Source: Pseudofrankia sp. DC12 (GTDB lineage: Bacteria; Actinomycetota; Actinomycetes; Frankiales; Frankiaceae). Taken from it: a stretch of 64,000 nt of DNA. Location of the stretch: NCBI RefSeq assembly GCF_000966285.1, contig NZ_KQ031391.1:1446378-1510377 (forward strand), given 5' to 3'. The translations under genes and the position numbers were made by a program. Positions 16,921 to 54,520 of this stretch are shown here, piece after piece (positions within the stretch are counted from its first letter, which is position 1; each line of letters begins with the position of its first letter). The notes under the pieces were generated by a model. That model saw only the letters and a program-made list of their open reading frames with translations. It was not told the DNA's origin and made no database searches.

Positions 16921-17813
16921 CCCCGACCCGCCCCACCCGGGCCACCGCCGACGGCCGCGCCTACCTGGACCTGCAGAACGCCGCCCGCCGCGGCGGCCGC
17001 GACACCGCCGAGTACCTCGCCCTCTACGCACTCGAAGGCTTCCTCGCCCGGCTCGCCGCGTCCCGCTACGCCCAGGACCTCGTCCTCAAAGGCGGAGTCC
17101 TGCTCGCCGCCTACGCCGCCCGCCGACCGACCCGCGACATCGACCTACAAGCCAACCGGCTGTCCAACGAGGTCGATGAGATCGTGACAGTCGCCCGCGA
17201 AATCGCCGCGCAGCCCCGCGACGACGGCCTCGCATACGACCTCGCCACGATCACCGGACGCGACATCCGCGACGAGGACCAGTACGCCGGCGTCCGCGTC
17301 TCGATCACCGCCCACCTCGCGTCCGCGGACATCCCGTTCCACCTGGACGTCAACTTCGGCGACCCGATCTGGCCCAACCCGGTCACCATCGCCTTACCAC
17401 TCCTGCTCGGCGGCCACATGACCGTCCTCGGCTACCCGGCACACATGATCCTCGCCGAGAAGATCGCCACCGCCCTCGAACGCGGCACCGTCAACACCCG
17501 CTGGCGCGACTTCGTCGACATCGCCACCATCACCACCCACACCACGATCATCGGGACCGACCTCGCCCAGGCCCTCCAGATCGTCGCCGACCACCGCCGC
17601 CTCACCCTCACCCCGCTGGCCCCGCTGCTCGCTGGCTTCGGCGCCTACGCCCAGCCGAAATGGCGAGCCTGGCGACGCCGCCAGCGACTCGAAGCCACCA
17701 CCCCAGAACTCTTCGACGACCTTGTCACCACCTGCTGCGCACTCGCCGACCCCATCATCCGCGGCGAAGCCACCCACCACCTCTGGCGCGACGGCGCCTG
17801 GCAACCAGCCTGA
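16917..17813 (+). CDS. abiEii: AbiEii nucleotidyltransferase toxin
   Basis: A 298-residue protein of the usual AbiEii length. The nucleotidyltransferase signature is LVLKGGVLLAAYAARRPTRD with Gly59-Gly60, followed by Asp74 and Asp76 in RDIDL. A later block, HMILAEKIATALERGTVNTR then WRDFVDI, carries the Lys and Arg/Asp positions typical of the family. Such proteins bind GTP and cause growth arrest and phage abortive infection. The gene is intact and coupled to abiEi. Confidence 0.88.
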   Translation: MTPTRPTRATADGRAYLDLQNAARRGGRDTAEYLALYALEGFLARLAASRYAQDLVLKGGVLLAAYAARRPTRDIDLQANRLSNEVDEIVTVAREIAAQPRDDGLAYDLATITGRDIRDEDQYAGVRVSITAHLASADIPFHLDVNFGDPIWPNPVTIALPLLLGGHMTVLGYPAHMILAEKIATALERGTVNTRWRDFVDIATITTHTTIIGTDLAQALQIVADHRRLTLTPLAPLLAGFGAYAQPKWRAWRRRQRLEATTPELFDDLVTTCCALADPIIRGEATHHLWRDGAWQPA

Positions 17814-19209: not shown

Positions 19210-19273
19210 TCAGACGGGAAGTTCGGTGATGCTGAGGGCGAAGTCCAAGTTCCCCACCCCGTGGTTGGCGAGG
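19210..19273 (-). pseudogene. 3' end of the reductase gene cut by the composite transposon
   Basis: Reading leftward from the IS boundary, this gives LANHGVGNLDFALSITELPV and a TGA at 19210-19212. It is the missing C-terminus of the reductase whose first 190 codons lie at 33042-33612. Compare [16 protein letters not shown] in the intact paralogue at 35592. Joined through one copy of the 11-base duplication, the gene is 624 bases, the same length as the paralogue. Confidence 0.9.
19263..19273. repeat. Target-site duplication, left copy (11 bp)
   Basis: GGTTGGCGAGG directly abuts the outer end of IS copy 1 and is repeated exactly at 33042-33052 outside IS copy 2. No such duplication joins the inner ends, which marks the whole 13.8 kb as one transposed unit. 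Confidence 0.9.
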
Positions 19274-21372
19274 CAATGCCAGTGAGCGGAGCTTGATCGC
19301 GTTTGCGGAGTGGTCTGGCTGGGTCTTGACCGGCGGTCACGGTGGGTGACGGTCGAGGGGTGGGGTGGCCGCGGGTGGCCGGGTGGTGTGACACGCCCGG
19401 CTGAACGGGGAACGTCCGGGTTGCGGCGATGTGGGTGGATCTCCGGGTAGAGATCGGGTGTCGAATCCATTTTCCCTGGCCCGGAGTCCGCTGTGTCTTT
19501 CTACTCTGTCGTGGCGTCGGTCGTGCTGCCTGGGGTGGCTGGCGGGCTTGCCGGTGCGGGGCTGGTCGCGTTGCGTGCCGGGGACGTGGCGGTGGGGCGG
19601 GCGCGGACGGCGGGGCGGCGCGGGGGTGGGCAGGCGCCGGTGGCGGAGCGGCGGTCGTTGCTGACGCTGGCGGACGGGGCGCGGCCGGTCGGGCAGGGCG
19701 ATGACATCGTCATCTACCGGCCTGTGCTGCGCGGTGTCGCGAGGACGTATGACGACGGCCAGATCCGGGTGGTCGGCCGGGCGGCGGACTTCGTGCGTCT
19801 CGGGCTGCTGGAGGCCGAGATCGACCGGCTGCTCGGTCCTGACGCGATCAACAGGCTGGTCGGTGAGCTCGCCGCGGGGAACGACGCCCCGGCGGCCGGC
19901 CCGGCCCTGGCCGCCGACGAGGTGGCCGGTGGGCAGGAGGGGGATACGGCGCGGGTGTTGACCCGGCCGGTGCTCGCGCGGGCGCTGATTCTGGGGATGG
20001 TCATGGCGGACACGTCGTGGGATGACGTGCTGGCGGCCCTGTTCGGTGAGCTGGCGGAGGTGCCGTTCACCGCGTGTGGTGCGGTCCCGGCGGGGTCGGG
20101 GTTCTCGAGGGCGCGGCGCGCCCTGCCCGGCGCGGTGCTCGACGAGCTGTGTGCCCGGCTGCTCGCCGCGGTGCGTGGCGAGTTGTCCGGCACCGACGGC
20201 GCGCAGGCGCTGACGGCGGGGAGCTTCCGCCTCGCCGGGTTCGACGGGACACTGGTCCGGCTGCCCGACACCGCGGACAACCGGGCGTTGTTCGGGGCGG
20301 GCACCGACCCGGCGCCGTACCCGCATGTGCGGCTCCTGCTCGACAACGATGCCGGGACGAAGGCGCCGCTCGCCTACGCCTACGGCCCGTCGAGCGGGGC
20401 GAAGGACGTCGGCGAGCAGGCCCTGCTCGAGCAGGTCGCCGAGGCGCCCGGGCTGCGCCGGCCTGACCTGCTGCATATCGGTGATCGCAACTTTCCCGGC
20501 GCCGACCGGCTGGAGCGCCTCGCCGCGGACGGGATGAAGCTGCTCGTGCGGCTGCCCGGCGGGATCACCGTGCGCCGGGTCGGGGACTGGCTGCCCGACG
20601 GGTCGTTCCTCGCTGACCTCGGTGCCGAGAAGGTCCTGGCCGGCTGGCGGGTCGTGGAGTACGACGTGTTCGCGGGCGGGGTCCACACCGGTGAGACGTT
20701 CGCGGTGGCCACCAACGTCACCGACCCCGCCGCGCTGTCCGCCGCGCAGGCCGCCGACGCCTACCACGCCCGCTGGGGCGCCACGGAGACCCCGCTGCGC
20801 GAGCAGAAAGCGGCCCTCCACCGCTCCGGGCCGGGCAGCGGCCCGATGCTGCGCGCGACCGACCCGTTCGAGGCCGCCCAGGAGATCCCCGCCTGGATCC
20901 TCGCCACCAGCCTCATCCGGGCCCTACAGCGCACCGTCGCCGCCCAGGCCACCCCCGCGGCCCGTGGCGCCCACGCCGGCCAGCCCGTCCTCGTGCGCGC
21001 GCTGTCCTACAAGGCGGCCCGGCACGCGGCCCTCCGCCACCTCGGCTGCGCGACCGCGGGCCTCCCCGACGAGATCATCCAGACCCGGCAGCGGCAGGCC
21101 CTCCACACCCTCGGTCGCCGCCGCCACACCCTCGGCCGCGGCCGCACCCGCGACCGCGCCGCCAAGAGCGCCTCCGACTTCCCGACCGCCCGCCCCGGCA
21201 TCACCACCCGCAAGGTCACCTACACGGTCCGGATCTGCGGGCCGATCCGCAACCAGACGCCCGCCACGCTCTCACTGATCACCAACGGTGATCACATCAC
21301 CGACAGCGACCACATGCCGGAACAAGCCAAGGCCGCCTGACAGACGCGATCAAGCACCAGTCACTGGCATTG
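19274..21372 (+). mobile_element. IS4-type element, copy 1 (2099 bp)
   Basis: Inverted ends: from the left CAATGCCAGTGAGCGGAGCT, and from the right on the other strand CAATGCCAGTGACTGGTGCT, with the match continuing through TGATCGCGT. The element carries one transposase gene behind a 219-base leader. Copy 3 at 50814 is nearly identical; copy 2 has one extra base. Confidence 0.9.
19493..21340 (+). CDS. IS4-type DDE transposase, 615 aa (copy 1)
   Basis: Catalytic residues in order: first Asp in LAGFDGTLVRLPDT (about residue 245), second Asp in LLHIGDRNFPGADRL (about 330), and the Glu region YHARWGATETPLREQK (about 428). The last fits the IS4 Y-R-E-K signature with one extra residue between R and E. 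The N-terminus has the insertion-element-4 domain (VLARALILGMVMADTSWDDV). At 615 residues it is longer than most IS4 transposases because of a long N-terminal extension and a basic C-terminal tail (RRRHTLGRGRTRDRAAKSA). The start is the GTG at 19493. This copy appears intact. Confidence 0.88.
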   Translation: MSFYSVVASVVLPGVAGGLAGAGLVALRAGDVAVGRARTAGRRGGGQAPVAERRSLLTLADGARPVGQGDDIVIYRPVLRGVARTYDDGQIRVVGRAADFVRLGLLEAEIDRLLGPDAINRLVGELAAGNDAPAAGPALAADEVAGGQEGDTARVLTRPVLARALILGMVMADTSWDDVLAALFGELAEVPFTACGAVPAGSGFSRARRALPGAVLDELCARLLAAVRGELSGTDGAQALTAGSFRLAGFDGTLVRLPDTADNRALFGAGTDPAPYPHVRLLLDNDAGTKAPLAYAYGPSSGAKDVGEQALLEQVAEAPGLRRPDLLHIGDRNFPGADRLERLAADGMKLLVRLPGGITVRRVGDWLPDGSFLADLGAEKVLAGWRVVEYDVFAGGVHTGETFAVATNVTDPAALSAAQAADAYHARWGATETPLREQKAALHRSGPGSGPMLRATDPFEAAQEIPAWILATSLIRALQRTVAAQATPAARGAHAGQPVLVRALSYKAARHAALRHLGCATAGLPDEIIQTRQRQALHTLGRRRHTLGRGRTRDRAAKSASDFPTARPGITTRKVTYTVRICGPIRNQTPATLSLITNGDHITDSDHMPEQAKAA

Positions 21373-21969
21373 CCGCGACGGCCCGGACGGCGGCTGATTC
21401 GGAGGTATGACTGGCGCGTATACGGAGGACGCGCGCGACGGCAGCGGCCCGAAATGACGGCGGGTGGCGGATCGAGGGACTCATTGTTGGGTCTCCAAGA
21501 GAGTAGCTGTCGCGCTCTCACTTTCGTTGCTGGTACCGCCCCCCCGCTTGACCCCGTTTCTGCTGGGTCGCCTGCCGGCGGCTTCCTACCGCTGGCGATG
21601 TCGGTGGTTAGGAAATTTGTTCGCGGGCGACAGCAGTACCACACCTTCTCTGCTCCGCGCTAGATGCTTCGTCACGGATGACGTCTATCTACTCGGTAGT
21701 AGATAACTCGGGCGCGTGCCGCCGGGGGGCTATGTGACGGCCACGTTAACAGAAATTGTGTGACGTGGATCATATTATGTACGGATAGTGACCGCAGGAA
21801 GGCCTCACGTCGCGACAGAGTGCCGGTTCTAATGGCGCACGGGCCGTCGGAGACCTGCGTGTTTGGTCCGGGGTTGGTGGTGGTTGGGTTGCTGGCCATC
21901 GTTCGGCTTCTACTTTCCGTGGCGAGCTAGTTGATCATTTGGTGGGGCTCGTCCTTGCGCTGACTCCTA
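21373..21969. other. Leader region of the Rhs gene
   Basis: This 597-base stretch between IS copy 1 and the Rhs gene is poorer in GC than its surroundings around 21700-21800 and has no convincing gene. It probably holds the Rhs promoter. I could not identify a canonical -35/-10 pair. Confidence 0.4.
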
Positions 21970-24900: not shown

Positions 24901-27900
24901 GTGACGCTGCACGCGTCGAACAACGTGTGCACGAAGTTCCTCAAGGTCATCGTGCTGACCGGCGCCAACCTGATCAACCCGATCGCCGCGACGAACATCG
25001 GTCCCGCGACGACGGCGGAGGGCGTGCTCAACCAGTCCGTCACGTCGACGACGGCCGGGTCGATGGCGTTCGCGGCCGTGGCCGACTGGAACGCCGCGGG
25101 CACCCCGACACCTGGCACCGGCGTCACGCTGGCCGGTAGCTACTCCCAGTTCGACGCGACCGGGGCGGCCCTGTACCGGACCGCGCCGTCGACGACGTTC
25201 GGCCAGACGATGACGATCTCCACCACGGCGCCGACGACGGCGACGAACTCGTGGGTCATGTTCGAGGTCCGGCCCGCCGTCGCCGCGACGACACCCGCCG
25301 CGACCGGGGTGTTCGGCCCCGGCTGGACGGCGTCCATGCCGGGCCCGGACGCCGGCCGCGCCGACGAGTCCCTGGCCGACTTCACCGACTCCCAGGGCTA
25401 CGTGACCCTGACCGACGAGACCGGGGTCCAGGACGTCTACCTCCGGTCCGGCACCGGCGCCTACCCGTACGCCTACACCGGTGTCGGTGACTCCGGGTCG
25501 GACGGGTCGAAGCTGGTCAAGAACTCGGCGACCCAGTTCACCGCGACCGACGACGACGGCACCCAGACGGTCTACCAGGCGGTGACCGTCAACGGCGCCA
25601 CGACCTGGCCGGTCGCCAGCGTGGTCGAGCCCGGTTCGGGTACCACCTCGTCCTTCACCACGGACTCCGCCGGCCGGACCACGCGTATCCTCGCGCCGGT
25701 CCCGGCCGGCATCACGTGCATCACTCTGGTCGCCGGGTGCCGCGCACTGACGCTGACCTACGCGTCCTCGACGACCGCGACCGGCACCACCCAGGCGACC
25801 TGGGGCGACTACGTCGGCCGGCTGACCGCGATAGCGATGTCGCTCAACGGCAACCCGGCGGTCACGGTCGCCCAGTACGCCTACGACTCGAACGGCCTGC
25901 TGCGTTCCGCCAAGGATCCCCGGACCGGGCTCGCGACCACCTACGGCTACGACAGCCTGAACCGCCTGACGACGGTCACACCGCCCGGCCAGGCGACCTG
26001 GACCATGGCCTACGACGGCAGCGGTCGGCTGCTGACGGCGTCCCGGCCGACCCCGGTCGGCGCGACCGCGACCCAGACGGTCGCTTACGACATCCCCGTC
26101 ACCGGCACCGGCGCGCCCATCGACCTGTCCTCCGGCCAGGCCGCGAACTGGGCCCAGACCGACCTGCCGATCTACGGCGCGGGCGTCTTCGCGGCCGACC
26201 ACGTGCCCGCCTCGCCGCCCACCGCCACGGACTGGCCCTACGCGTCCCTGACCTACCTGGACACGGACGGCCGAGCGGTCAACGCGGCGAGCTACGGCAA
26301 CAACGCCTGGCAGATCAGCACGACGGAACACGACGCCAACGGCAACGTCGTCCGCTCTCTGTCCGCGGAGAACCGCGACCAGGCGCTGAGCCCCACCGCC
26401 GACACGGACCCGTCGGTAGCCGCGCTCACGACCTCGGCCGCCCGCTCGCAGTTGGTGGACGACCAGACGGTCTACTCGTCGGACGGCGTGCTCGTCACCG
26501 ACACCTACGGCCCGACGCACCCGATCATCGACAACAGCGGCGGCCGGTACTCCGCCCGCGAGCATGTCCACACCGACTACGACCAGGGCGCCCCGTCCGC
26601 ACCCGACCCCTACCGCCTGCCTACCACGGTCACGACGACAGCCCGGACGCTCACCGGAACGGACGTCGACCCCCGCAAGACCGTGAACGGCTATGAGGCC
26701 AAGACCGGGGCCGACCCGTCGACCTCCGGCTGGACCCTGCGCAAGCCCACCACCGTGACGACCTGGATGGGCGGCGGCACCACCCCCGACATCGTCAAGA
26801 CGACCTACTACAACGCCGCCGGCAACGTCGTCGAGAGCCGCCAGCCCAAGGCGAACAACACCGGCACCGACGCCTACACCACCCTCACCACGTACTACAC
26901 GGCGACTGGGACGGGTAGCTGCGTCAACGCCTCGTGGACCGGCCTGGCCTGCACCTCCGGTCCGGCCGCCCAGCCCAGCACCGGCAACCCGCTGCCCGTG
27001 ACCACCAACACTTACAACGATCTCGCCGAGCCGCTGACGTCGACCGACAGCGTCACCGTCTCGGGCACGACGACGACTCGGACGACGACCGACACCTACG
27101 ACAGCGCGGGCCGAAAGACCTCCGAGGCGATCGCCGCGAGCCCCGCGGCCAACGGCGGTACTGCCCTTCCGACCGCCACTTACGGCTTCGATCCCGCGAC
27201 CGGTCTGGCAACGACCACAACCGCCAGCGGAATCACGCTGACCACGGGCTATGACTCCTGGGGTCGGGTCACGTCGCAAACGGATGCCGATGGCAACTCG
27301 GCCTCGAGTAGCTATGACATCGACGGTCGGGTGGCGACCTCGTCCGACGGGAAGGGTACCTACACTTACACGTATGACGGAGTCGCGGGAGAACACCGCG
27401 GCCTGGTCACCTCCCTCAACGTCGGCGCCGGCTCCGCCCCGTCCACCTTCTCCGCCACCTACAACGGCGACGGAAGCATGACGACGGAGACCTATCCAAG
27501 CGGTCTGGTCGCGAAGACCCGGTACGACAACTCCGGCGATGCCAACGCGCTGACCTACACCATGGGCACCACTCCTTGGATGACGTTCGCGCAGGCCAAC
27601 TCGATCTACGGCCAGGTTCGGCTCGACAGCACGCCACAGGGTGGCAGAACTCTTGGCTATGACCCCTCCGGCCGGCTGGCGTCGGTCGCGGATACCGCCA
27701 GCTTCGGCAGCGGGACGGCCCTGTGCAGCACTCGTGTCTATGCCTACGACGCCGAGTCCAACCGCGCCTCGCTGACGAGCTACCCCGACGCAGGGGGCAG
27801 TGACACCGGCACCTGCTCGACCAGCACGTCACCCACCGGTTTCGGTTTCGGCTACGACCAGGCCGACCGCCTCACCAACAGCGGCTACACCTACGACCTG

Positions 27901-28953
27901 TTCGGCCGGACCACCACCGACCCCTACCCACCCAACGGCACGTCGGCCACGATTGGCTACTACGTCAACGACCAGGTCGCGTCCGAGACAGTGGGCTCCA
28001 CGACCCGCACCTACGCGACCGACCCGGCCCGGCGCATCCGCTCCTGGACCGACGGCAGCTCGACCTCGATCAACCACTACACATCTTCGTCCGGGGACGA
28101 TCCCGCCTGGATCGGGACCGGGACCGCCTGGACCCGCAACATTGTCGGCATCGACGGCAGCCTGGCCGCCAGCCAGGACAACGCCGGCACCGTCACCCTG
28201 CAGCTGGCCAACCTGCACGGCGACATCGTCGCCACGGTGGCGGACTCGACCAGCGCGACGTCACTGGCCAGCTACGCGGACAACACCGAGTTCGGGCTGC
28301 CGTACTTCACCTCCGCGGCCTACCCCACCTACGGCTGGCTCGGCGGCAAGCAGCGCTCCCGCAACACCCTCTCCGGCCTCACCCTCATGGGCGTCCGCCT
28401 CTACGACCCCGACCTCGGCCGCTTCCTCCAGACCGACCCCGTCCCCGGCGGCTCCGCCAACGCCTACGACTACTGCAACGCCGACCCCATCAACTGCACC
28501 GACGTAGACGGACAATGGCCCCACCTTCGGAAGATGTGGAAGAAGCTTCAAAAGGCCGGCCTAAATCTTGCGAACAATAAGCTGATCACGCTCTGCACGA
28601 ACTTTGCACCAGGGCAGCTTGGCATGGCGTGCGGATTGACGCAGGTCATCGGCTACTCACTTAACGGTCAGTTTAGGAACGCTGCTGGCGTCGGTTTGGG
28701 AATGGCGGTTGGAGCGGGGGTCGGTGCGGCCATCGATCGTTATGGAATGGCTGTCCTCGCGCGTCGGGTAGTTCGACCTCGGAGCGTCCGAGCTCCCAGG
28801 CTCAGTCGTGTGGAAAGGTTTGCGGTGGCGGCCTACCGGCGGACCAAGGGCAGGCCGTGGTCGTATCCTAAGTACGTGGCGGGCGTCTCATCGGCCAACA
28901 CAACGGCGACCTACGTCAGTGGAAGCCGTGCCTCGTGGGATCCGTATTGGTGA
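21970..28953 (+). CDS. Rhs/YD-repeat polymorphic toxin, 2327 aa
   Basis: A giant secreted protein. It has an N-terminal hydrophobic export region (LVVLLATALVSTAVASVPA), a beta-rich part, and a DNRLRE-type module around residues 330-500 (YSQLRLGNLNGNSVNRSFLR, WNSQPTADGVVWGSG). Then follow Ig/Fn3-like segments and many YD repeats from about residue 1290 (YGYDSLNRLTTVTPPG, TGYDSWGRVTSQTDADGN). The conserved Rhs core ends at about residue 2180 with GVRLYDPDLGRFLQTDP and YDYCNADPINCTDVDG. The remaining ~147 residues are a variable toxin tip with a glycine-zipper helix (VGLGMAVGAGVGAAID); this part is markedly lower in GC. Start is the TTG at 21970; a later GTG is possible. The toxin activity is not identifiable. 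Confidence 0.88.
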   Translation: MVLHFRWSHRGHRSSRLVSVLALSCALLAGFGIGVGVLATLLVRRVWSVRVLVVLLATALVSTAVASVPALRSPARAVTPPAADQGPAERPDLVSAQLTARAQKRRIEVTGLRTESTTAYVNPDGTMTVDSYSGIRRVRAGDGWADVDTTLVVADGKVTPKVTKAGIVLSAGSQSAGDVATLIDGDRTVAFGWASALPAPVLKDNTATYKGVAADTDLVVTVTATGYDLQIVAYTPAAAQAALRVPMRLHGVTASRTPGGETQLSAGGKVTARSPAPLMWDAHVDPTSRQPTATRTVDATLDTAKADAPTLTLKPDKTWLTDKARQYPVTIDPAATLADNLDTDVNSANPTTNYDTYSQLRLGNLNGNSVNRSFLRFDDSAIKGKHVTSAVLNLWQGGSQTCTVEPMVVEGSGLMGPGTTWNSQPTADGVVWGSGTFNNGGSCTGSGGTNIDITGLVSAWSSNGFASPEALTMRASNESDTNQFKWFYSGDTILAPHISVTYNSYPATVSGRSTAPCLAPCAVSPSPVLTNTTTPTLYGGSYDPDGTAVRVDFEVWNANATTDIANGSVSNIAANSTGAWTVPSGLLANGGSYEWRARGFDGTDYSKAWSTWIPFAVDTTAPAAPSAVSSTVWPSGGWGSATSGTFTWTSPGGDTKSFLYGLDQPSPSTETTSTTTATLGPTPGLHKFYVRTKDTSGNLSSVVSYSFGVGTGALAQPDEGARIQRYTTLEGQAPSSQVSVRYQYHWGSNTSTTWVDIPTSDVVIAGTSTHPTAWPVARNGSALFDKLTWDLGTTMANYSVPDGADQIRACFTDSSSTVSCTPARTVQYSRRAFADADATAPVGPGTVALLTGDFAVSATDVSMPTYTGSLTVGRTDTTLSSAGGLVVDPSSPAAVGWAGNGCTAAGNAVTASFTAPANALLLAFGDTASNASGASNGPSLSDSGGLTWTQIGSSGASATKDEAVAWWAKTTGSSARTVTLHASNNVCTKFLKVIVLTGANLINPIAATNIGPATTAEGVLNQSVTSTTAGSMAFAAVADWNAAGTPTPGTGVTLAGSYSQFDATGAALYRTAPSTTFGQTMTISTTAPTTATNSWVMFEVRPAVAATTPAATGVFGPGWTASMPGPDAGRADESLADFTDSQGYVTLTDETGVQDVYLRSGTGAYPYAYTGVGDSGSDGSKLVKNSATQFTATDDDGTQTVYQAVTVNGATTWPVASVVEPGSGTTSSFTTDSAGRTTRILAPVPAGITCITLVAGCRALTLTYASSTTATGTTQATWGDYVGRLTAIAMSLNGNPAVTVAQYAYDSNGLLRSAKDPRTGLATTYGYDSLNRLTTVTPPGQATWTMAYDGSGRLLTASRPTPVGATATQTVAYDIPVTGTGAPIDLSSGQAANWAQTDLPIYGAGVFAADHVPASPPTATDWPYASLTYLDTDGRAVNAASYGNNAWQISTTEHDANGNVVRSLSAENRDQALSPTADTDPSVAALTTSAARSQLVDDQTVYSSDGVLVTDTYGPTHPIIDNSGGRYSAREHVHTDYDQGAPSAPDPYRLPTTVTTTARTLTGTDVDPRKTVNGYEAKTGADPSTSGWTLRKPTTVTTWMGGGTTPDIVKTTYYNAAGNVVESRQPKANNTGTDAYTTLTTYYTATGTGSCVNASWTGLACTSGPAAQPSTGNPLPVTTNTYNDLAEPLTSTDSVTVSGTTTTRTTTDTYDSAGRKTSEAIAASPAANGGTALPTATYGFDPATGLATTTTASGITLTTGYDSWGRVTSQTDADGNSASSSYDIDGRVATSSDGKGTYTYTYDGVAGEHRGLVTSLNVGAGSAPSTFSATYNGDGSMTTETYPSGLVAKTRYDNSGDANALTYTMGTTPWMTFAQANSIYGQVRLDSTPQGGRTLGYDPSGRLASVADTASFGSGTALCSTRVYAYDAESNRASLTSYPDAGGSDTGTCSTSTSPTGFGFGYDQADRLTNSGYTYDLFGRTTTDPYPPNGTSATIGYYVNDQVASETVGSTTRTYATDPARRIRSWTDGSSTSINHYTSSSGDDPAWIGTGTAWTRNIVGIDGSLAASQDNAGTVTLQLANLHGDIVATVADSTSATSLASYADNTEFGLPYFTSAAYPTYGWLGGKQRSRNTLSGLTLMGVRLYDPDLGRFLQTDPVPGGSANAYDYCNADPINCTDVDGQWPHLRKMWKKLQKAGLNLANNKLITLCTNFAPGQLGMACGLTQVIGYSLNGQFRNAAGVGLGMAVGAGVGAAIDRYGMAVLARRVVRPRSVRAPRLSRVERFAVAAYRRTKGRPWSYPKYVAGVSSANTTATYVSGSRASWDPYW

Positions 28954-29092
28954 CCATGGGTTCCTGCGATGCACGAAGGAAATTTAATCCAGCAAACCCC
29001 AATTGCAGCCGTCGCGACGAGGATCTCCTAAATGCCAATTGATACCCCAGCCGCTGCTCCCCGTTTTGTGCGACCGTGATCGGAGGGGTTCG

Positions 29093-30091
29093 GTGATCAA
29101 GTCGCCTGTTCGCGCCACGAACCTGTCCGATGGTAGGCGCCTCCTGCTCGGTGTGCTCGTGGCCGTGGGAGGTCTTGGGCTGGCGCTGGGGTGGCTGCGG
29201 TCCGACTACGTCTTCGCGCACAGAGGCGTTTCGACGATCGCTGAGGTCGTCAAACCCGGCGTGGGGCGTGGTCCGAGCACTGTTCGTTTCACGACGGGCG
29301 ACGGTCGAGTGATCGTGACGGAGCTCGATGCGCCAACGGACGTTCCGGTCGGCGGTCGGCTACGGATCGTGTACAACCGAGGCAACCCCTATGCGGTACA
29401 TGGCGGGAACAACGTTCCTTACTACGTTGGGCCTGCGGCAGCCGGTGCTGCCGCGCTCGGGATCGGGGCCTTCTTCGTCGGGACCTTCGTGCGACGGCGT
29501 CGGCGGTTCCCCGGCTGGAGCCCGATGTCCCTCGCCGAAGCCACGGAGCTGTTCACCAGGTGGCCGGGACCGTGGTGGATCGCGGGTGACCGCGCTGTCG
29601 ACCGCGGGCTGGCCCGCGCTGCGGCCGGGCCGGACATGACCATCCTCGTGACCGTGCCCAAGGCAGGGATGTTGCAGGCACTACTGCCAGGCTGGGAGAT
29701 CTGGTCCTACAGCAGCTGGCCGCGCCGGCACCGGCCGACCGACGACCTCAGCCGTACAGGGACTGACGAACTGTGGGCCCGGCAGGCCGACCGGCAGCCG
29801 TGGCAGCTGCGCATCCTGCTCGCCGACGTCGACCAGGATGCTTGGAAGCCTCGTTGGGACGCCCAGTCACCTATCCCACTCGCCGATCTGAGCCAGGCCG
29901 GCACGGACCCGGTCAAATTCCTGATCCCTGAACTGGCGCTCTACTGGCAGGTCGTCGCCGCCCGCCGACCGTGGACCTCCCAGAAGATCATCGACGCGGT
30001 CGCCTTGTTGAGCAAGTCGCAGCGGGAAAAGCTACGTCAGACCCTGAACGACGGCGGCCATGCCGACGCCGCGCGCCGCGTCCTCGGCTGA
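29093..30091 (+). CDS. Two-TM DUF3592-like protein, candidate Rhs immunity
   Basis: A 332-residue protein. It has a first membrane helix (LLLGVLVAVGGLGLALGWL), a short extracytoplasmic beta domain of the DUF3592 type (RFTTGDGRVIVTELDAPTDV, RLRIVYNRGNPY), a second helix (AAGAAALGIGAFFVGTFV), and a cytosolic part with Trp-rich motifs (FTRWPGPWWIAGD). The GTG at 29093 is chosen for its GGAGGGG site at 29082-29088. It directly follows the Rhs toxin tip, where immunity genes normally lie. The immunity role is inferred from position. The membrane topology would fit protection against an envelope-acting or membrane-crossing toxin. Confidence 0.65.
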   Translation: MIKSPVRATNLSDGRRLLLGVLVAVGGLGLALGWLRSDYVFAHRGVSTIAEVVKPGVGRGPSTVRFTTGDGRVIVTELDAPTDVPVGGRLRIVYNRGNPYAVHGGNNVPYYVGPAAAGAAALGIGAFFVGTFVRRRRRFPGWSPMSLAEATELFTRWPGPWWIAGDRAVDRGLARAAAGPDMTILVTVPKAGMLQALLPGWEIWSYSSWPRRHRPTDDLSRTGTDELWARQADRQPWQLRILLADVDQDAWKPRWDAQSPIPLADLSQAGTDPVKFLIPELALYWQVVAARRPWTSQKIIDAVALLSKSQREKLRQTLNDGGHADAARRVLG

Positions 30092-30519
30092 GGCAGCGCG
30101 TCACCCGCCCCCTGCCGGCGAGTAGTTCTCGGCCGGTCAGGTAGCTGGTGCCGTTGTCGTGAAGCTGATCGTCGGCGGCGGCCAGCCCCGCACAACAGAG
30201 CCCGCGCATGTCCGATCGGTGTGATAGGAACAGAACAGTTGCATACAACCTACACTGATCTTCTGGTAGCGCCCGTCAGCGGACCCGCTGATCGTTGTTT
30301 TCGGCCTGTGGTGGCCGTGAATCGGTCCTGATGGGCCAAGACTCCTCTCCGCCATCGAGCGAGAGCGGCGGGGAGTGGGACGAGCCGGGGACATCGAGGC
30401 CCTCAATGTTGCGCTGGACCCAGCCTGGCCCCTCGTCGGAGTCTCGGTCCTGATCGTCGTGATCGGCGTTTATCTGCTGTCGGTCGTGGCGCTGGGCAGT
30501 CACACGGCGGCACCGATAG
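30092..30519. other. Non-coding or decayed stretch before orphan Rhs tip
   Basis: I see no intact gene. A plus-strand frame from 30375 (SVLIVVIGVYLLSVVALG) is hydrophobic and runs into the Rhs-tip relic, but it has no ribosome binding site or family match. Confidence 0.35.
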
Positions 30520-30941
30520 GGCCAGTGGAAATGGCGCAAGCACATCACCTGGAAGAGAGTGGCGTTCGCGGCAGGTATCGCCTCGTTCGGGGTCTGCGTC
30601 GTCGCATCCGCGGGTGCCTGCGCCGGCGTCGGGATCATCGCGGCCGGTCTGTCGGCGACAGCAAAACCAATGGGAAGCTCAACAAGACCTGGGTCAAGAG
30701 CTTCGCGCTCAACGCCACGATAAACACCGCAGGGGCGGCAGCCGGATGGGCGCTTGGTGCCGGGAGACTGGGCGGAGTCGGTGTGAGGGCTTCGGCGCAT
30801 GGTCGTGCCACGCTCCTTTTCAAGTTCCTCGGCCACACTAGCGGAGGCAGGTTGATGCGCGCGAACCCCAAGATCATATATCAGCGGTCTGCGCAGGCCG
30901 CGGCGGGATTGGGGTACTGCTGGGAGACGCGGTCCTGCCCC
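30520..30941 (+). pseudogene. Orphan Rhs C-terminal toxin-tip relic
   Basis: Two overlapping frames encode the parts of a typical Rhs tip. The first (from 30520) reads WKWRKHITWKRVAFAAGIAS, then FGVCVVASAGACAGVGIIAA, a pretoxin membrane helix. The second (from about 30650) continues SKTNGKLNKTWVKSFALNAT, then INTAGAAAGWALGAG. A frameshift near 30655 separates them and IS copy 2 truncates the 3' end. There is no start and no Rhs core. Silent tips of this kind are known downstream of rhs genes as reservoirs for tip exchange. Confidence 0.65.
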
Positions 30942-33041
30942 CAATGCCAGTGAGCGGAGCTTGATCGCGTTTGCGGAGTGGTCTGGCTGGGTCTTGACCG
31001 GCGGTCACGGTGGGTGACGGTCGAGGGGTGGGGTGGCCGCGGGTGGCCGGGTGGTGTGACACGCCCGGCTGAACGGGGAACGTCCGGGTTGCGGCGATGT
31101 GGGTGGATCTCCGGGTAGAGATCGGGTGTCGAATCCATTTTCCCTGGCCCGGAGTCCGCTGTGTCTTTCTACTCTGTCGTGGCGTCGGTCGTGCTGCCTG
31201 GGGTGGCTGGCGGGCTTGCCGGTGCGGGGCTGGTCGCGTTGCGTGCCGGGGACGTGGCGGTGGGGCGGGCGCGGACGGCGGGGCGGCGCGGGGGTGGGCA
31301 GGCGCCGGTGGCGGAGCGGCGGTCGTTGCTGACGCTGGCGGACGGGGCGCGGCCGGTCGGGCAGGGCGATGACATCGTCATCTACCGGCCTGTGCTGCGC
31401 GGTGTCGCGAGGACGTATGACGACGGCCAGATCCGGCTGGTCGAGCCGGGCGGCGGACTTCGTGCGTCTCGGGCTGCTGGAGGCCGAGATCGACCGGCTG
31501 CTCGGTCCTGACGCGATCAACAGGCTGGTCGGTGAGCTCGCCGCGGGGAACGACGCCCCGGCGGCCGGCCCGGCCCTGGCCGCCGACGAGGTGGCCGGTG
31601 GGCAGGAGGGGGATACGGCGCGGGTGTTGACCCGGCCGGTGCTCGCGCGGGCGCTGATTCTGGGGATGGTCATGGCGGACACGTCGTGGGATGACGTGCT
31701 GGCGGCCCTGTTCGGTGAGCTGGCGGAGGTGCCGTTCACCGCGTGTGGTGCGGTCCCGGCGGGGTCGGGGTTCTCGAGGGCGCGGCGCGCCCTGCCCGGC
31801 GCGGTGCTCGACGAGCTGTGTGCCCGGCTGCTCGCCGCGGTGCGTGGCGAGTTGTCCGGCACCGACGGCGCGCAGGCGCTGACGGCGGGGAGCTTCCGCC
31901 TCGCCGGGTTCGACGGGACACTGGTCCGGCTGCCCGACACCGCGGACAACCGGGCGTTGTTCGGGGCGGGCACCGACCCGGCGCCGTACCCGCATGTGCG
32001 GCTCCTGCTCGACAACGATGCCGGGACGAAGGCGCCGCTCGCCTACGCCTACGGCCCGTCGAGCGGGGCGAAGGACGTCGGCGAGCAGGCCCTGCTCGAG
32101 CAGGTCGCCGAGGCGCCCGGGCTGCGCCGGCCTGGCCTGCTGCATATCGGTGATCGCAACTTTCCCGGCGCCGACCGGCTGGAGCGCCTCGCCGCGGACG
32201 GGATGAAGCTGCTCGTGCGGCTGCCCGGCGGGATCACCGTGCGCCGGGTCGGGGACTGGCTGCCCGACGGGTCGTTCCTCGCTGACCTCGGTGCCGAGAA
32301 GGTCCTGGCCGGCTGGCGGGTCGTGGAGTACGACGTGTTCGCGGGCGGGGTCCACACCGGTGAGACGTTCGCGGTGGCCACCAACGTCACCGACCCCGCC
32401 GCGCTGTCCGCCGCGCAGGCCGCCGACGCCTACCACGCCCGCTGGGGCGCCACGGAGACCCCGCTGCGCGAGCAGAAAGCGGCCCTCCACCGCTCCGGGC
32501 CGGGCAGCGGCCCGATGCTGCGCGCGACCGACCCGTTCGAGGCCGCCCAGGAGATCCCCGCCTGGATCCTCGCCACCAGCCTCATCCGGGCCCTACAGCG
32601 CACCGTCGCCGCCCAGGCCACCCCCGCGGCCCGTGGCGCCCACGCCGGCCAGCCCGTCCTCGTGCGCGCGCTGTCCTACAAGGCGGCCCGGCACGCGGCC
32701 CTCCGCCACCTCGGCTGCGCGACCGCGGGCCTCCCCGACGAGATCATCCAGACCCGGCAGCGGCAGGCCCTCCACACCCTCGGTCGCCGCCGCCACACCC
32801 TCGGCCGCGGCCGCACCCGCGACCGCGCCGCCAAGAGCGCCTCCGACTTCCCGACCGCCCGCCCCGGCATCACCACCCGCAAGGTCACCTACACGGTCCG
32901 GATCTGCGGGCCGATCCGCAACCAGACGCCCGCCACGCTCTCACTGATCACCAACGGTGATCACATCACCGACAGCGACCACATGCCGGAACAAGCCAAG
33001 GCCGCCTGACAGACGCGATCAAGCACCAGTCACTGGCATTG
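30942..33041 (+). mobile_element. IS4-type element, copy 2 (2100 bp)
   Basis: It has the same inverted ends as copy 1 and the same orientation. One base longer, because of an insertion near 31440. It forms the right arm of the composite transposon: the reductase gene continues directly at 33042. Confidence 0.9.
31161..33009 (+). pseudogene. IS4-type transposase, copy 2, frameshifted
   Basis: It is identical to copies 1 and 3 over almost the entire length. At about 31437-31450 the sequence reads CGGCTGGTCGAGCCGGG where copy 1 reads CGGGTGGTCGGCCGGG: one substitution and one inserted base. The frame is lost after about residue 95, so the catalytic domain is only reachable from internal starts. 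A second change turns LRRPDLLHIGD into LRRPGLLHIGD. This copy is probably inactive but can be moved by transposase from copy 1 or 3. Confidence 0.85.
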
Positions 33042-33052
33042 GGTTGGCGAGG
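33042..33052. repeat. Target-site duplication, right copy (11 bp)
   Basis: GGTTGGCGAGG, identical to 19263-19273, abuts the outer end of IS copy 2. Confidence 0.9.
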
Positions 33053-33612
33053 CCCACCGTGACCACGCCCGCTCCTTCCAGCCAGTGCGCCATTTTCAGG
33101 CCGCCGACGTCCAGCGGGCGCAGCCCGAGGCTCTCGATGAACGCCTCCACACTTGCCTTGGCCTGCGCATTATCGCCAGCGAGGAAGACGTCGGGCTGGC
33201 CCTTCTCCAGGACATGACGGAAGATGGTGTTGAACGCCTTCACCACGCTGGCGCTGGCCGGGGCCGCCTTGGCGACTGCCTGCGCGATCGAGGTCTCCTC
33301 GCGGTGGGCTAGCCCGTCGAACGTGGAATTGAAGGGATTGCTGATGTCGACGATAACCTTGCCCGCGAGAGCGTCTCCGTACTGGGCGACGACCGGCACG
33401 ACGCCGTCGTACAACAGGGCCACGATGACGATGTCCCCGGCCGGGGCGGTTCCCCATTCTCCCGTCGTGGCGCCGCCGCCGAGAGCCTTGGCCAGGTCAG
33501 CGGCCTTGGACTGATCGCGGCCCATGACCTCGACCGTGTTGCCGCCCGCTACCGCCCGCGCACCGATGGTGCGGGCCATGTTCCCGGTGCCGATGATGCT
33601 GATGCTGCTCAT
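33042..33612 (-). pseudogene. NADPH-dependent F420 reductase-like gene, 5' part
   Basis: The first 190 codons of a Rossmann oxidoreductase: SISIIGTGNMARTIGARAVA is the nucleotide-binding GxGxxA loop, followed by GDIVIVALLYDGVV, VIVDISNPFN and VVKAFNTIF. That is the layout of NADPH:F420 oxidoreductase/NAD-binding-2-type enzymes. The ATG at 33612 begins MSSISII, as in the intact paralogue at 36215. The frame is cut at LAN by IS copy 2, and its last 17 residues are at 19210-19262. With the insertion removed, the gene reads through in frame to 207 residues. Confidence 0.9.
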
Positions 33613-33645
33613 CAGATGTCCTGCCACGGTTGTGTGTTGTTCGGT

Positions 33646-35591: not shown

Positions 35592-36215
35592 TCAGCTGAG
35601 ACTGCTGACGCCGAGGGAGAAGTTGAAGTCCCCCACGCCGTGGCGGGCCAGGCTGATCATCAGCAGGCCCGCCCCTTCCAGCCAGTGCGCCATCTCCAGG
35701 CCTCCGGCATCCAGGGGTCGCAACCCAAGGCTCTCGATGAACGCCGATACGCTCGCCTTGGCCCACGCGTCGTCGCCGGCGAAGAGCACGTCCAGCGGGC
35801 GGCCCGGGGCCAGTACGTGGCCGAAGACGGTGTTGAACGCCTTCACGACGTGCGCGCTCGCCGGGGCGGCCTTGGCGATCTCCTGCGCGGCGGAAGTGCC
35901 GTCGGGGCTAACCAGCCCGGTGGCGTCGGCGTTAATGGGGTTGGTGATGTCGATGATGACCTTGCCGACGAGCGCGTTCCCGTACTGGGCGACGACCGGC
36001 ACGGCGCTGGCGTTCGGCACGGCGAGGATGACGATGTCGCCGGCTGGGGCAGTGCCGAACGTCCCGACCGTGGCGCCGCCACCGAGCGCGGCGGCCAAGT
36101 CCTTGGCCTTGGCCGCGTCGCGACCGACGACCTCGACGGCATTGCCGCCCTCGACCGCGCGGGCGCCTATGGCGCGGGCCATGCCCCCCAGGCCGATAAT
36201 GCTGATGCTGCTCAT
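35592..36215 (-). CDS. NADPH-dependent F420 reductase-like protein (intact paralogue)
   Basis: A 207-residue Rossmann enzyme with [20 protein letters not shown] (GxGxxA), [31 protein letters not shown] and [16 protein letters not shown]. The C-terminus is [12 protein letters not shown] followed by [16 protein letters not shown]. It is paralogous along its whole length to the broken gene at 33042-33612/19210. Family members pass hydride between NADPH and F420 or act on other small substrates. Divergent from the LysR gene at 36414, which may regulate it. Confidence 0.85.
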
Positions 36216-36413
36216 CGAGTGCCTGCTTTCTGGAGCTGGATAGCTGGACAGAACGCCACGCCCATCCGGTTGTTGTAACGGTGGTGTCGTCGACGCCCTT
36301 GAATGACGCAATGAACGGCGCTCAATTCCACGGTGCCACTGGCCTAAGCAGGTGTCCAAGACCTCTTTCAGCCGTTGCGATACCCTGAAGGCATCGCCGG
36401 ACCGGGAGGCTCC

Positions 36414-50478: not shown

Positions 50479-50813
50479 TCAGCTCTCGGCGGGGGGGATG
50501 TTGGGGTTGAGCCGGAAGCGGTTTTCCGGGTCGTAGGTGCGCTTGACCTGCCGAAGGCGTTCGACATTGCGCCCCCAGGCCCGTGCCCGGTCGGCGTCGT
50601 TCAGATCGGCGTCGCCGCCGAAGCTGAGGTAGGTGCCCGACGTGGCCCGCAAGGTGACGGCCTCGCTGTAGGTATCGCGCACCCAGCGGACGTTCGCGTC
50701 GTTGTCGGCTGGGTCCAGCCAGTTTCCGTCAATGCTCAGGATGTACCGTGCGCTGCGATCACCGAACGCGGTTTCGGCCGCCCCGACTCTCGACATGGCA
50801 CCACCCAGGAGAG
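50479..50813 (-). pseudogene. FAD-linked oxidase gene, 3' part (BBE domain)
   Basis: The frame after the IS reads LLGGAMSRVGAAETAFGDRS, then YILSIDGNWLDP and ends TYDPENRFRLNPNIPPAES. That is the C-terminal berberine-bridge-enzyme region ('kYDP.N.F...q.I'). It is the missing end of the gene at 52913-54024. Joined through one copy of the 10-base duplication the reading frame is continuous (1437 bases, 478 residues). Confidence 0.9.
50804..50813. repeat. Target-site duplication of IS copy 3, left
   Basis: CCCAGGAGAG immediately left of the IS end at 50814; the same ten bases follow the right end at 52913-52922. Confidence 0.92.
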
Positions 50814-52912
50814 CAATGCCAGTGAGCGGAGCTTGATCGCGTTTGCGGAGTGGTCTGGCTGGGTCTTGACCGGCGGTCACGGTGGGTGACGGTCGAGGGG
50901 TGGGGTGGCCGCGGGTGGCCGGGTGGTGTGACACGCCCGGCTGAACGGGGAACGTCCGGGTTGCGGCGATGTGGGCGGATCTCCGGGTAGAGATCGGGTG
51001 TCGAATCCATTTTCCCTGGCCCGGAGTCCGCTGTGTCTTTCTACTCTGTCGTGCCGTCGGTCGTGCTGCCTGGGGTGGCTGGCGGGCTTGCCGGTGCGGG
51101 GCTGGTCGCGTTGCGTGCCGGGGACGTGGCGGTGGGGCGGGCGCGGACGGCGGGGCGGCGCGGGGGTGGGCAGGCGCCGGTGGCGGAGCGGCGGTCGTTG
51201 CTGACGCTGGCGGACGGGGCGCGGCCGGTCGGGCAGGGCGATGACATCGTCATCTACCGGCCTGTGCTGCGCGGTGTCGCGAGGACGTATGACGACGGCC
51301 AGATCCGGGTGGTCGGCCGGGCGGCGGACTTCGTGCGTCTCGGGCTGCTGGAGGCCGAGATCGACCGGCTGCTCGGTCCTGACGCGATCAACAGGCTGGT
51401 CGGTGAGCTCGCCGCGGGGAACGACGCCCCGGCGGCCGGCCCGGCCCTGGCCGCCGACGAGGTGGCCGGTGGGCAGGAGGGGGATACGGCGCGGGTGTTG
51501 ACCCGGCCGGTGCTCGCGCGGGCGCTGATTCTGGGGATGGTCATGGCGGACACGTCGTGGGATGACGTGCTGGCGGCCCTGTTCGGTGAGCTGGCGGAGG
51601 TGCCGTTCACCGCGTGTGGTGCGGTCCCGGCGGGGTCGGGGTTCTCGAGGGCGCGGCGCGCCCTGCCCGGCGCGGTGCTCGACGAGCTGTGTGCCCGGCT
51701 GCTCGCCGCGGTGCGTGGCGAGTTGTCCGGCACCGACGGCGCGCAGGCGCTGACGGCGGGGAGCTTCCGCCTCGCCGGGTTCGACGGGACACTGGTCCGG
51801 CTGCCCGACACCGCGGACAACCGGGCGTTGTTCGGGGCGGGCACCGACCCGGCGCCGTACCCGCATGTGCGGCTCCTGCTCGACAACGATGCCGGGACGA
51901 AGGCGCCGCTCGCCTACGCCTACGGCCCGTCGAGCGGGGCGAAGGACGTCGGCGAGCAGGCCCTGCTCGAGCAGGTCGCCGAGGCGCCCGGGCTGCGCCG
52001 GCCTGACCTGCTGCATATCGGTGATCGCAACTTTCCCGGCGCCGACCGGCTGGAGCGCCTCGCCGCGGACGGGATGAAGCTGCTCGTGCGGCTGCCCGGC
52101 GGGATCACCGTGCGCCGGGTCGGGGACTGGCTGCCCGACGGGTCGTTCCTCGCTGACCTCGGTGCCGAGAAGGTCCTGGCCGGCTGGCGGGTCGTGGAGT
52201 ACGACGTGTTCGCGGGCGGGGTCCACACCGGTGAGACGTTCGCGGTGGCCACCAACGTCACCGACCCCGCCGCGCTGTCCGCCGCGCAGGCCGCCGACGC
52301 CTACCACGCCCGCTGGGGCGCCACGGAGACCCCGCTGCGCGAGCAGAAAGCGGCCCTCCACCGCTCCGGGCCGGGCAGCGGCCCGATGCTGCGCGCGACC
52401 GACCCGTTCGAGGCCGCCCAGGAGATCCCCGCCTGGATCCTCGCCACCAGCCTCATCCGGGCCCTACAGCGCACCGTCGCCGCCCAGGCCACCCCCGCGG
52501 CCCGTGGCGCCCACGCCGGCCAGCCCGTCCTCGTGCGCGCGCTGTCCTACAAGGCGGCCCGGCACGCGGCCCTCCGCCACCTCGGCTGCGCGACCGCGGG
52601 CCTCCCCGACGAGATCATCCAGACCCGGCAGCGGCAGGCCCTCCACACCCTCGGTCGCCGCCGCCACACCCTCGGCCGCGGCCGCACCCGCGACCGCGCC
52701 GCCAAGAGCGCCTCCGACTTCCCGACCGCCCGCCCCGGCATCACCACCCGCAAGGTCACCTACACGGTCCGGATCTGCGGGCCGATCCGCAACCAGACGC
52801 CCGCCACGCTCTCACTGATCACCAACGGTGATCACATCACCGACAGCGACCACATGCCGGAACAAGCCAAGGCCGCCTGACAGACGCGATCAAGCACCAG
52901 TCACTGGCATTG
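50814..52912 (+). mobile_element. IS4-type element, copy 3 (2099 bp)
   Basis: Same inverted ends and length as copy 1, with only a few base differences (for example one in the leader and GCC to CCG near codon 8). A perfect 10 bp target duplication shows a simple, fairly recent insertion into the FAD-linked oxidase gene. Confidence 0.92.
51033..52880 (+). CDS. IS4-type DDE transposase, 615 aa (copy 3)
   Basis: Full-length frame with all catalytic blocks: FDGTLVRLPDT, LLHIGDRNFPGADRL and YHARWGATETPLREQK. It differs from copy 1 by Ala to Pro in SVVPSVVLPG near the N-terminus. It is therefore one of two apparently functional transposase genes in the window and a possible source of transposase for the frameshifted copy 2. 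Confidence 0.88.
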   Translation: MSFYSVVPSVVLPGVAGGLAGAGLVALRAGDVAVGRARTAGRRGGGQAPVAERRSLLTLADGARPVGQGDDIVIYRPVLRGVARTYDDGQIRVVGRAADFVRLGLLEAEIDRLLGPDAINRLVGELAAGNDAPAAGPALAADEVAGGQEGDTARVLTRPVLARALILGMVMADTSWDDVLAALFGELAEVPFTACGAVPAGSGFSRARRALPGAVLDELCARLLAAVRGELSGTDGAQALTAGSFRLAGFDGTLVRLPDTADNRALFGAGTDPAPYPHVRLLLDNDAGTKAPLAYAYGPSSGAKDVGEQALLEQVAEAPGLRRPDLLHIGDRNFPGADRLERLAADGMKLLVRLPGGITVRRVGDWLPDGSFLADLGAEKVLAGWRVVEYDVFAGGVHTGETFAVATNVTDPAALSAAQAADAYHARWGATETPLREQKAALHRSGPGSGPMLRATDPFEAAQEIPAWILATSLIRALQRTVAAQATPAARGAHAGQPVLVRALSYKAARHAALRHLGCATAGLPDEIIQTRQRQALHTLGRRRHTLGRGRTRDRAAKSASDFPTARPGITTRKVTYTVRICGPIRNQTPATLSLITNGDHITDSDHMPEQAKAA

Positions 52913-52922
52913 CCCAGGAGAG
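52913..52922. repeat. Target-site duplication of IS copy 3, right
   Basis: CCCAGGAGAG, identical to 50804-50813. Confidence 0.92.
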
Positions 52923-54024
52923 GCGCATGCACCAACGTCTTCGGGTCCGGGCGGTTCTGGCCGACGCGAACCACGAACGCGGCCGCTTCCTCGTCGAACT
53001 GGTCCAGGTAGACGGACTTCCAGTAGCTCTGCAGCTCACCCTTCGGGAAGAGGGGGTCGAGGGCGGACTGCGCCGTCCGGTACGGCACCGCCCTGCTCAT
53101 GTCTGCGAGCGGCCTGCCGAGCTCGGCGAGCTCCCGACACGCCAGTCGGCCCTCGTCCGGGTCGCCCGCGTACAAGGCGGCCGTGATGAACACATCGCGG
53201 TTGTGTACGGAGGGCGGGAATGCCGGCATCGCTGGCAACGACCAGAACATGGCCCGGCTGGTGACTTCGTCGGGGACATTGGACGCCCAGTCCCGCCATC
53301 TCGGCAGCACCTCGGCGGCAGCGTCGGCCGGGTAGACCACCAAGCCGTTCCAGACGACCTGGCCGAGCGGATAGGCCTCGAACTCGAACGACACCACCAC
53401 GCCGAAGTTACCGCCGCCGCCGCGCAGCGCCCAGAACAGGTCCTCGCGCTCGGACGCGCTGCATCGCACGATGTCGCCACGTGCCGTCACGACTTCGGCC
53501 GCGCGCAGTGCATCGCAGGCCAGCCCGTACTTGCGGTGCAGCCAGCCGATTCCGCCCCCGAGCGTCAGGCCAGCCACACCCGTGGTCGACACGACCCCGC
53601 CAGGTACCGCGAGCCCGTGCAGCTGCGTCTCGCGGTCCACGTCGCCCCAGGTCGCACCCCCCGCAACCCGCGCACGCCGCCGATCCGGGTCCACCCAGAC
53701 ACCCCGCATCGCAGACAGATCGATCATCAAACCGTCGTCGGTCGTGCAGGTCCCCGCGATGCTGTGGCCGCCGCCCCGGACCGCGACGAGGAGGTCGCGG
53801 TCCGTGGCAAGCTTGACGGCGTCGACGACGTCGGCTGCGCCGGTACACCGGACGATGAGACCTGGTCTGCGGTCGAGCATGGCATTCTGGATGATCCGCG
53901 CTTCGTCGTACCCGACATCGTCCGAGGTCAGAACCGTCCCCCGGAAGATCTCGCGGATCTCCTCCACCGTCTCATCCGACAGTGTCTGCCGCTCGCCTCC
54001 CAGCGTGAGCACCTGTACCGACAT
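52913..54024 (-). pseudogene. FAD-linked oxidase (BBE-like) gene, 5' part, cut by IS
   Basis: The first 370 codons of a PCMH-type FAD-binding oxidoreductase. It has the FAD segment LLVAVRGGGHSIAGTCTTDD with the His expected to carry covalent FAD, then GVAGLTLGGGIGWLHRKYGL, DIVRCSASEREDLFWALRGG and GGNFGVVVSFEFE. The second (Cys) flavin link of berberine bridge enzymes is replaced by Trp-Leu-His in GGGIGWLHR. The frame breaks at HAPLLG at the IS; the BBE end lies at 50479. Start ATG at 54024 with a GGGGGAGGGG site. Enzymes of this type oxidise sugars, alkaloids or antibiotic intermediates. Confidence 0.9.
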
Positions 54025-54520
54025 GGCGCGCCCCTCCCCCTCGTGCTCGCCGATGTCCCCCGGTCTGCACAGCTCTTCCTCCAGGGTCGCGCTAGGACCG
54101 GATTGTCGCAAGGCGTACCGGGACGGCAACCATGGGTCGCCATGATGGTGGGTCTGATGCTGGAGGCGAGGATCTGCCCGTCAGGATGACGGCGACCTGA
54201 CCGGAGGGGAGGGCAGGCCCACACGACGACCCCAGTGACGGCAACAGCGCCAGACACCGCCGAGCCGCTGGCGTGCTGGTGCTGCGCTACCACTCTCGCC
54301 CACGAGGTCCCTGTCGCCAGACCCGTGTGCCGATCCGGCAAAACCGCCCGCAGGCGGTGCTGGCAGCGCCGTGTGCGCACCCCGAGCGGGGTCTGCCAGA
54401 CCCACGGTGTACGCCTCCCGACCCACCAATCCGAGGCGTTCCGGCCGGGGTAGGCTCGCAACGAAGATCCGGCACGGTGGAAGCCCCGGCGCCGCGTCGG
54501 CCCAGCCTCGGGAGGCAATC
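54025..54520. other. Intergenic region between oxidase and haemoglobin genes
   Basis: No gene is well supported. A Cys-rich plus-strand frame (54235-54453, with LACWCCATTLAH) is open but lacks a clear ribosome binding site and family. The GTAGGCT at about 54449 could be part of the haemoglobin promoter. Confidence 0.35.

What the first reader, a model, noticed from the sequence alone, without database searches (positions are those of the whole stretch)
50804..52922. Third IS copy interrupts an FAD-linked oxidase with a perfect 10 bp duplication
CCCAGGAGAG is repeated at both ends. Removing the IS and one repeat joins HAPLLG to LLGGAMSRVG in frame to give a complete 478-residue enzyme with its BBE end. 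It shows recent transposition and defines the true IS ends (CAATGCC).
Basis: seen in the sequence. Interest (0 to 1): 0.6.

Follow-up and report, generated by a model that had tools for sequence, protein, structure and literature searches.

The report
Jumping gene splits an oxidase gene
A recently moved, ordinary mobile DNA element has cut an oxidase gene in two in a Frankia-like bacterium, leaving the expected short repeat at each end; two sister copies nearby appear to have carried a large toxin-like gene into another gene as one unit.

Summary
A 2,099-bp insertion sequence (50814-52912) is flanked by the direct repeat CCCAGGAGAG (50804-50813, 52913-52922). It splits a berberine-bridge-type FAD-linked oxidase. 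With the insert and one repeat left out, the frame encodes 478 residues, and ten orthologous loci from other Frankiaceae genomes run uninterrupted through the site at 83-90% nucleotide identity. The element is IS4-type, with an intact 615-aa DDE transposase and 29-bp imperfect terminal repeats; five near-identical copies in the genome indicate recent movement. This part is ordinary.

The other two window copies (19274-21372, 30942-33041) lack duplications of their own. They share one 11-bp duplication at their outer ends, and relatives keep the empty site. They therefore bound a 13.8-kb composite transposon carrying an RHS/YD-repeat (polymorphic-toxin-like) gene. That gene duplicates the RHS locus at 6.1 Mb but has a different C-terminal tip, which a sister genome also carries. 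Only one of the five copies is a plain insertion with its own duplication. One copy outside the window carries 15 bp of the composite's target beside its end; I could not explain this.

The parts
50804..50813 (+). left copy of the 10-bp target duplication CCCAGGAGAG
   Evidence: read directly
50814..52912 (+). IS copy 3, 2,099 bp, IS4-type, ends CAATGCCAGTGA, imperfect terminal inverted repeats (26 of 29 positions)
51033..52880 (+). transposase, 615 aa, DDE residues D251/D331/E432 conserved
52913..52922 (+). right copy of the 10-bp target duplication CCCAGGAGAG
   Evidence: read directly
52913..54129 (-). 5' part of the interrupted FAD-linked oxidase (FAD_binding_4); the 478-aa frame starts inside this stretch, the ORF start 54129 is the mechanical one
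   Evidence: PF01565 116.2 bits, cut-off 26.4; orthologs; frame
50479..50813 (-). 3' part of the interrupted oxidase with BBE domain
   Evidence: PF08031 42.6 bits, cut-off 20.6
19274..21372 (+). IS copy 1, left end of the composite transposon, intact transposase
30942..33041 (+). IS copy 2, right end of the composite transposon, 1-bp insertion stops its transposase after 116 codons
21373..30941 (+). cargo of the composite transposon: RHS/YD-repeat gene 21970-28953 and smaller ORFs
19263..19273 (+). left copy of the composite's 11-bp target duplication GGTTGGCGAGG
33042..33052 (+). right copy of the composite's 11-bp target duplication GGTTGGCGAGG
33043..33627 (-). 5' part of the F420-reductase-like gene split by the composite; its 3' end lies left of 19273
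   Evidence: PF03807; joined frame and empty sites

Best explanation
The feature is a recent simple insertion of an IS4-type insertion sequence into a berberine-bridge-type FAD oxidase gene. From family knowledge, the transposase cuts the element out at its CAATGCC ends and joins it to target strands cut 10 bp apart; gap repair then leaves the 10-bp duplication (inferred, not observed here). The gene is split before its C-terminal BBE region and is most likely non-functional (inferred). In the same window, copies 1 and 2 bound a 13.8-kb composite transposon that entered an F420-reductase-like gene as one unit, or was completed there by recombination. It carries an extra RHS gene whose tip differs from that of the RHS locus at 6.1 Mb.
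For: Copy 3: exact 10-bp duplication and element ends; 1 of 61,880 control segments flanked by identical 10-mers; gap-free empty site in 10 of 10 ortholog loci; 10-11 bp duplications in 8 of 9 copies of the related IS; DDE and YREK residues; family duplication lengths from PMC2266710. Composite: shared 11-bp duplication at outer ends only; uninterrupted gene in relatives, the closest at 96.7% and 95.1% nucleotide identity with the 11 bp present once; the cargo is homologous to an RHS locus elsewhere in the genome and in sisters.
Against: The NCBIfam IS4 match is below the curated cut-off (75.7 against 115) and Pfam gives none. Only 1 of the 5 copies shows its own duplication. No reads, strain comparison or transposition assay were available. 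The flanks of L002 and L004 are not explained by simple insertion.
Confidence: 0.93

Rival explanations
1. Assembly artefact: the IS was placed into the oxidase gene wrongly because near-identical copies collapse or swap in assembly.
For: Five near-identical 2.1-kb copies exist, and four of them lack a duplication of their own. No reads were available.
Against: A swap between copies would not create a perfect 10-bp duplication whose single copy fits the uninterrupted gene in ten relatives. The genome is one contig.
Confidence: 0.03
2. The oxidase was already a decaying pseudogene and the IS landed in it without consequence.
For: Insertions in dead genes are tolerated (general knowledge).
Against: Apart from the insert the frame is open over 478 codons, and the 5' piece is 79-89% identical in protein to ten orthologs.
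Confidence: 0.05
3. For copies 1 and 2: a lone IS entered the F420-reductase-like gene first, and a circle of IS plus cargo later recombined into it, so the pair never transposed as one unit.
For: This gives the same shared outer duplication (reasoning). Copy 2 has private differences that copy 1 lacks.
Against: Nothing in the sequence excludes it; it needs one step more.
Confidence: 0.35

Closest known systems
IS4 family of insertion sequences (De Palmenaer et al. 2008, PMC2266710; passages seen)
   Same: DDE transposase with Y, R, E and K residues; duplication of 10-11 bp; end CAATG fits the -AATR end of subgroup IS4.
   Different: 2,099 bp against 1,400-1,650 for subgroup IS4; 615-aa transposase; four residues between R and E where 14 of 17 aligned sequences have three; below the NCBIfam cut-off.
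IS4-annotated (ISAs1) insertions in Frankia casuarinae CcI3 pyrF (PMC11946415; passages seen)
   Same: Insertion into a coding gene of a Frankia with a 10-bp direct repeat.
   Different: Observed as new laboratory mutants; inverted repeats of 19 bp. That element was not compared with this one here.
Composite transposon (general kind, recalled)
   Same: Two IS copies of one type flank passenger genes, with one target duplication at the outer ends.
   Different: The passenger is an RHS/YD-repeat gene; movement not tested.
Polymorphic toxin / RHS systems (PMC3482391, PMC3150448; start of abstracts seen in the listing)
   Same: Large YD-repeat protein with RHS core and a variable C-terminal tip.
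   Different: Here an extra copy sits between two IS copies; toxicity, immunity and delivery were not tested.

Membership tests
IS4 family | target duplication of about 10 bp (7-13 across its subgroups) | tested here: met
   10 bp at copy 3 and 11 bp at the composite; related IS 10-11 bp in 8 of 9 copies; range
IS4 family | DDE catalytic triad | tested here: met
   D251 15/16, D331 15/16, E432 17/17 rows of the alignment
IS4 family | YREK motif | tested here: inconclusive
   Y424 17/17, R427 17/17, E432 17/17, K439 14/16, but R-(4)-E spacing instead of R-(3)-E
IS4 family | match to the curated NCBIfam IS4 model above its cut-off | tested here: not met
   75.7 bits against 115
IS4 subgroup IS4 | -AATR ends and 1,400-1,650 bp | tested here: not met
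   end CAATG fits, 2,099 bp does not, so not filed in this subgroup
composite transposon | two copies of one IS flanking other genes | tested here: met
composite transposon | single target duplication at the outer ends and an empty site in relatives | tested here: met
   11 bp; L063 and L064 keep the 11 bp once
composite transposon | moves as a unit | not testable with these tools
   needs strains or an assay
berberine-bridge-type FAD-linked oxidase | FAD_binding_4 plus C-terminal BBE domain | tested here: met
   on the two pieces separately
RHS polymorphic toxin | RHS/YD repeats, RHS core, variable tip | tested here: met
   tip differs from the 6.1-Mb copy after 7.1 kb
RHS polymorphic toxin | toxic tip and immunity gene | tested here: inconclusive
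   no family match for the downstream ORFs in Pfam, NCBIfam or PADLOC; activity not tested

The most novel reading that the evidence does not exclude
This IS lineage moves RHS/YD-repeat genes between Frankiaceae as composite transposons, bringing a second RHS copy with a different C-terminal tip into a genome that keeps its own. The copy at 106 kb, with 15 bp of the composite's target attached to its right end, would record an aberrant event that carried flanking DNA along.
Probability: 0.3. Interest if true: 0.45.

Novelty: new member of a known kind. Interest (0 to 1): 0.2.

Why it matters
The insertion itself is a textbook event that inactivates one oxidase in one genome. It shows that the element was recently active and fixes its ends. 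The nearby composite transposon is more useful: it offers a concrete route by which an extra RHS allele with another tip can enter a genome, and this can be tested by comparing strains.

Tried and rejected
Rejected: chance repeat; an assembly swap as the cause of copy 3's duplication; copies 1 and 2 as independent simple insertions (neither has its own duplication); an inversion between IS copies as the cause of the mismatched flanks of L002 and L004 (no reciprocal match among the ten flanks other than the GGTTGGCGAGG one). For the 15 bp at L004 I considered target preference alone and find it unlikely but not excluded. The 15-mer occurs at only 2 places in the genome, both beside an IS end; the 11-mer occurs at 17 places, of which 3 abut IS ends. 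The relatives' peptidase genes were too distant (54-55% aa) to tell whether those bases belong to that gene.

Led nowhere: genome-contig scan with the transposase (55 stretches, none confirmed); solved structures (0 hits); plasmids (83 records, none covering 80% of the query, all under 60% identity); phylum-wide transposase search (1 of 396 genomes, the own one, at E 1e-20; only 3 candidates scored per genome, so misses are possible); PADLOC on the cargo (no hit for the three cargo ORFs). Structure prediction was not run.

Full report
What was checked. The window is bases 1446378-1510377 of a 6.88-Mb single-contig genome. The closest named records holding this oxidase are Pseudofrankia, Frankia and Parafrankia. 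CCCAGGAGAG lies at 50804-50813 and 52913-52922, exactly against the ends CAATGCCAGTGA and TCACTGGCATTG. The element is 50814-52912, 2,099 bp, and its terminal inverted repeats match at 26 of the first 29 positions. Sliding a 2,099-bp segment over the window gives identical flanking 10-mers in 1 of 61,880 positions.

The interrupted gene. On the minus strand, the pieces on either side of the element carry FAD_binding_4 and BBE domains, each above the Pfam cut-off. With insert and one repeat left out, the frame is open for 478 codons and reads HAPLLGGAMSRVG over the site. In 58 genomes searched (own included), ten others hold an ortholog 79-89% identical over the 405-aa piece. All ten of those loci align with the joined sequence at 83-90% nucleotide identity, without a gap in the 90 nt around the site. 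Four of the ten (L031, L033, L034, L035) show one or two stop codons somewhere in the stretch matched by the 405-aa query, which begins upstream of the 478-aa start; I did not place those stops. Because the insert separates the C-terminal part, the product is probably inactive; this is inference.

The element. The 615-aa transposase has no Pfam hit at E 0.001 and a sub-threshold match to NCBIfam's IS4 model, 75.7 bits against 115. In an alignment of 17 sequences the residues D251, D331, E432, Y424, R427 and K439 are conserved (counts in the membership table). This transposase, its 61-63% identical relative in the same genome and the G017 remnant have four residues between R and E; the other 14 have three. 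By the published table (PMC2266710, passages) the duplication length and the AATR end fit subgroup IS4, while the length does not. I call it IS4-type and leave the subgroup open.

Copies. The genome holds five copies of this IS and nine of a relative 73% identical in DNA, plus remnants. Of the nine, eight have their own duplication, six of 10 bp and two of 11 bp; L012 has none. Of the five main copies only copy 3 has its own. Compared with copy 3, L002 differs at one base, copy 1 and L004 at two, and copy 2 at four bases plus a 1-bp insertion that stops its transposase after 116 codons. In 57 relatives a DNA search found no long match except in G017, a 66% stretch of about 1.3 kb with a 213-bp piece near it; the other listed matches are short (list cut by the tool). 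With the protein, 11 of 35 family genomes, own included, match at E 1e-5; the best outside the own genome is 48% identical with stops inside, and the rest are at most 40%.

The composite transposon. Copy 1's left flank and copy 2's right flank share GGTTGGCGAGG. These outer flanks are two parts of one gene with an F420_oxidored domain. Of 13 ortholog loci given, 12 gave alignments; eight run at least 29 nt past the site uninterrupted, a ninth runs 11 nt past it, and three end before it. L063 and L064, at 96.7% and 95.1% nucleotide identity, keep the same 11 bp once; the others differ within it. So 19274-33041 behaves as one inserted unit. The cargo (21373-30941) holds a 2,327-aa ORF with DNRLRE, YD-repeat and RHS core domains (RHS_repeat). 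Its first 7.1 kb are 97% identical to a locus at 6.107 Mb of the same genome. Sequence upstream of that locus also lies beside the RHS gene in G001 and G002, so I take it as the native copy. After 7.1 kb the two differ, whereas the sister G002 matches the cargo over 8.7 kb at 95%. The cargo is therefore an extra RHS allele with another tip. Tip exchange in such systems is known (PMC3482391, PMC3150448; start of abstracts seen in the listing). Whether the unit transposed whole or was completed by recombination cannot be told from sequence.

Unexplained. The copy at 105773-107871 has GGTTGGCGAGGCCCA at its right end, the same 15 bp as beside copy 2; this 15-mer occurs nowhere else in the genome. 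It sits at the start of a truncated peptidase S51 gene, and its left flank does not match. At this base composition a 15-bp match has a chance of about 1e-8 per comparison. Either flanking DNA was carried along by an aberrant event, or two rearranged insertions used the same target. I could not decide.

Literature. A paper on Frankia IS content (PMC2770080, passages) reports many IS4 transposases; the words 'composite transposon' do not occur in its held text. A search for 'Frankia' with 'composite transposon' listed three papers, none with Frankia in its title. A search for composite transposon, Rhs and insertion sequence found 18 papers; of the 12 listed, none has RHS cargo in its title. I make no claim beyond these searches.

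Verdict. The finding is correct and ordinary: a recent simple IS insertion. The composite transposon beside it is a modest addition.

Noticed in passing
window 19263-33052: IS copies 1 and 2 share one 11-bp duplication at their outer ends and bound a 13.8-kb composite transposon with an RHS/YD-repeat gene, inserted in an F420-reductase-like gene.
   Followed up: yes
L024 9759-11872 (G000:C1:105758-107871): IS copy whose right flank repeats 15 bp of the composite's target site next to a truncated peptidase S51 gene, with an unmatched left flank.
   Followed up: partly
L025 8910-11008 (G000:C1:2459409-2461507): IS copy without any duplication of its own; the right flank reads like the end of a tyrosine recombinase gene (motif recalled, no call).
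   Followed up: no
L006-L014 (G000): Nine copies of a second IS, 2,085 bp and 73% identical to this one; 8 of 9 have 10-11 bp duplications, L012 has none.
   Followed up: partly
L084 and L085 (G000:C1:6104500-6122500 and 1284500-1296500): Two further RHS loci in the genome, 97% and about 75% identical to the cargo's core, each with a different tip. The second lies between two copies of the 73% IS (L006, L013), each of which has its own duplication.
   Followed up: partly
window 16917-17813 +: AbiEii-type nucleotidyltransferase gene (type IV toxin-antitoxin / abortive infection family) just left of the composite transposon.
   Followed up: no
window about 35592-36404 -: Paralog of the F420-reductase-like gene that the composite interrupts.
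   Followed up: no
window 30375-30941 +: ORF cut short by IS copy 2 at the right edge of the cargo; no Pfam, NCBIfam or PADLOC match, perhaps an orphan RHS tip.
   Followed up: no
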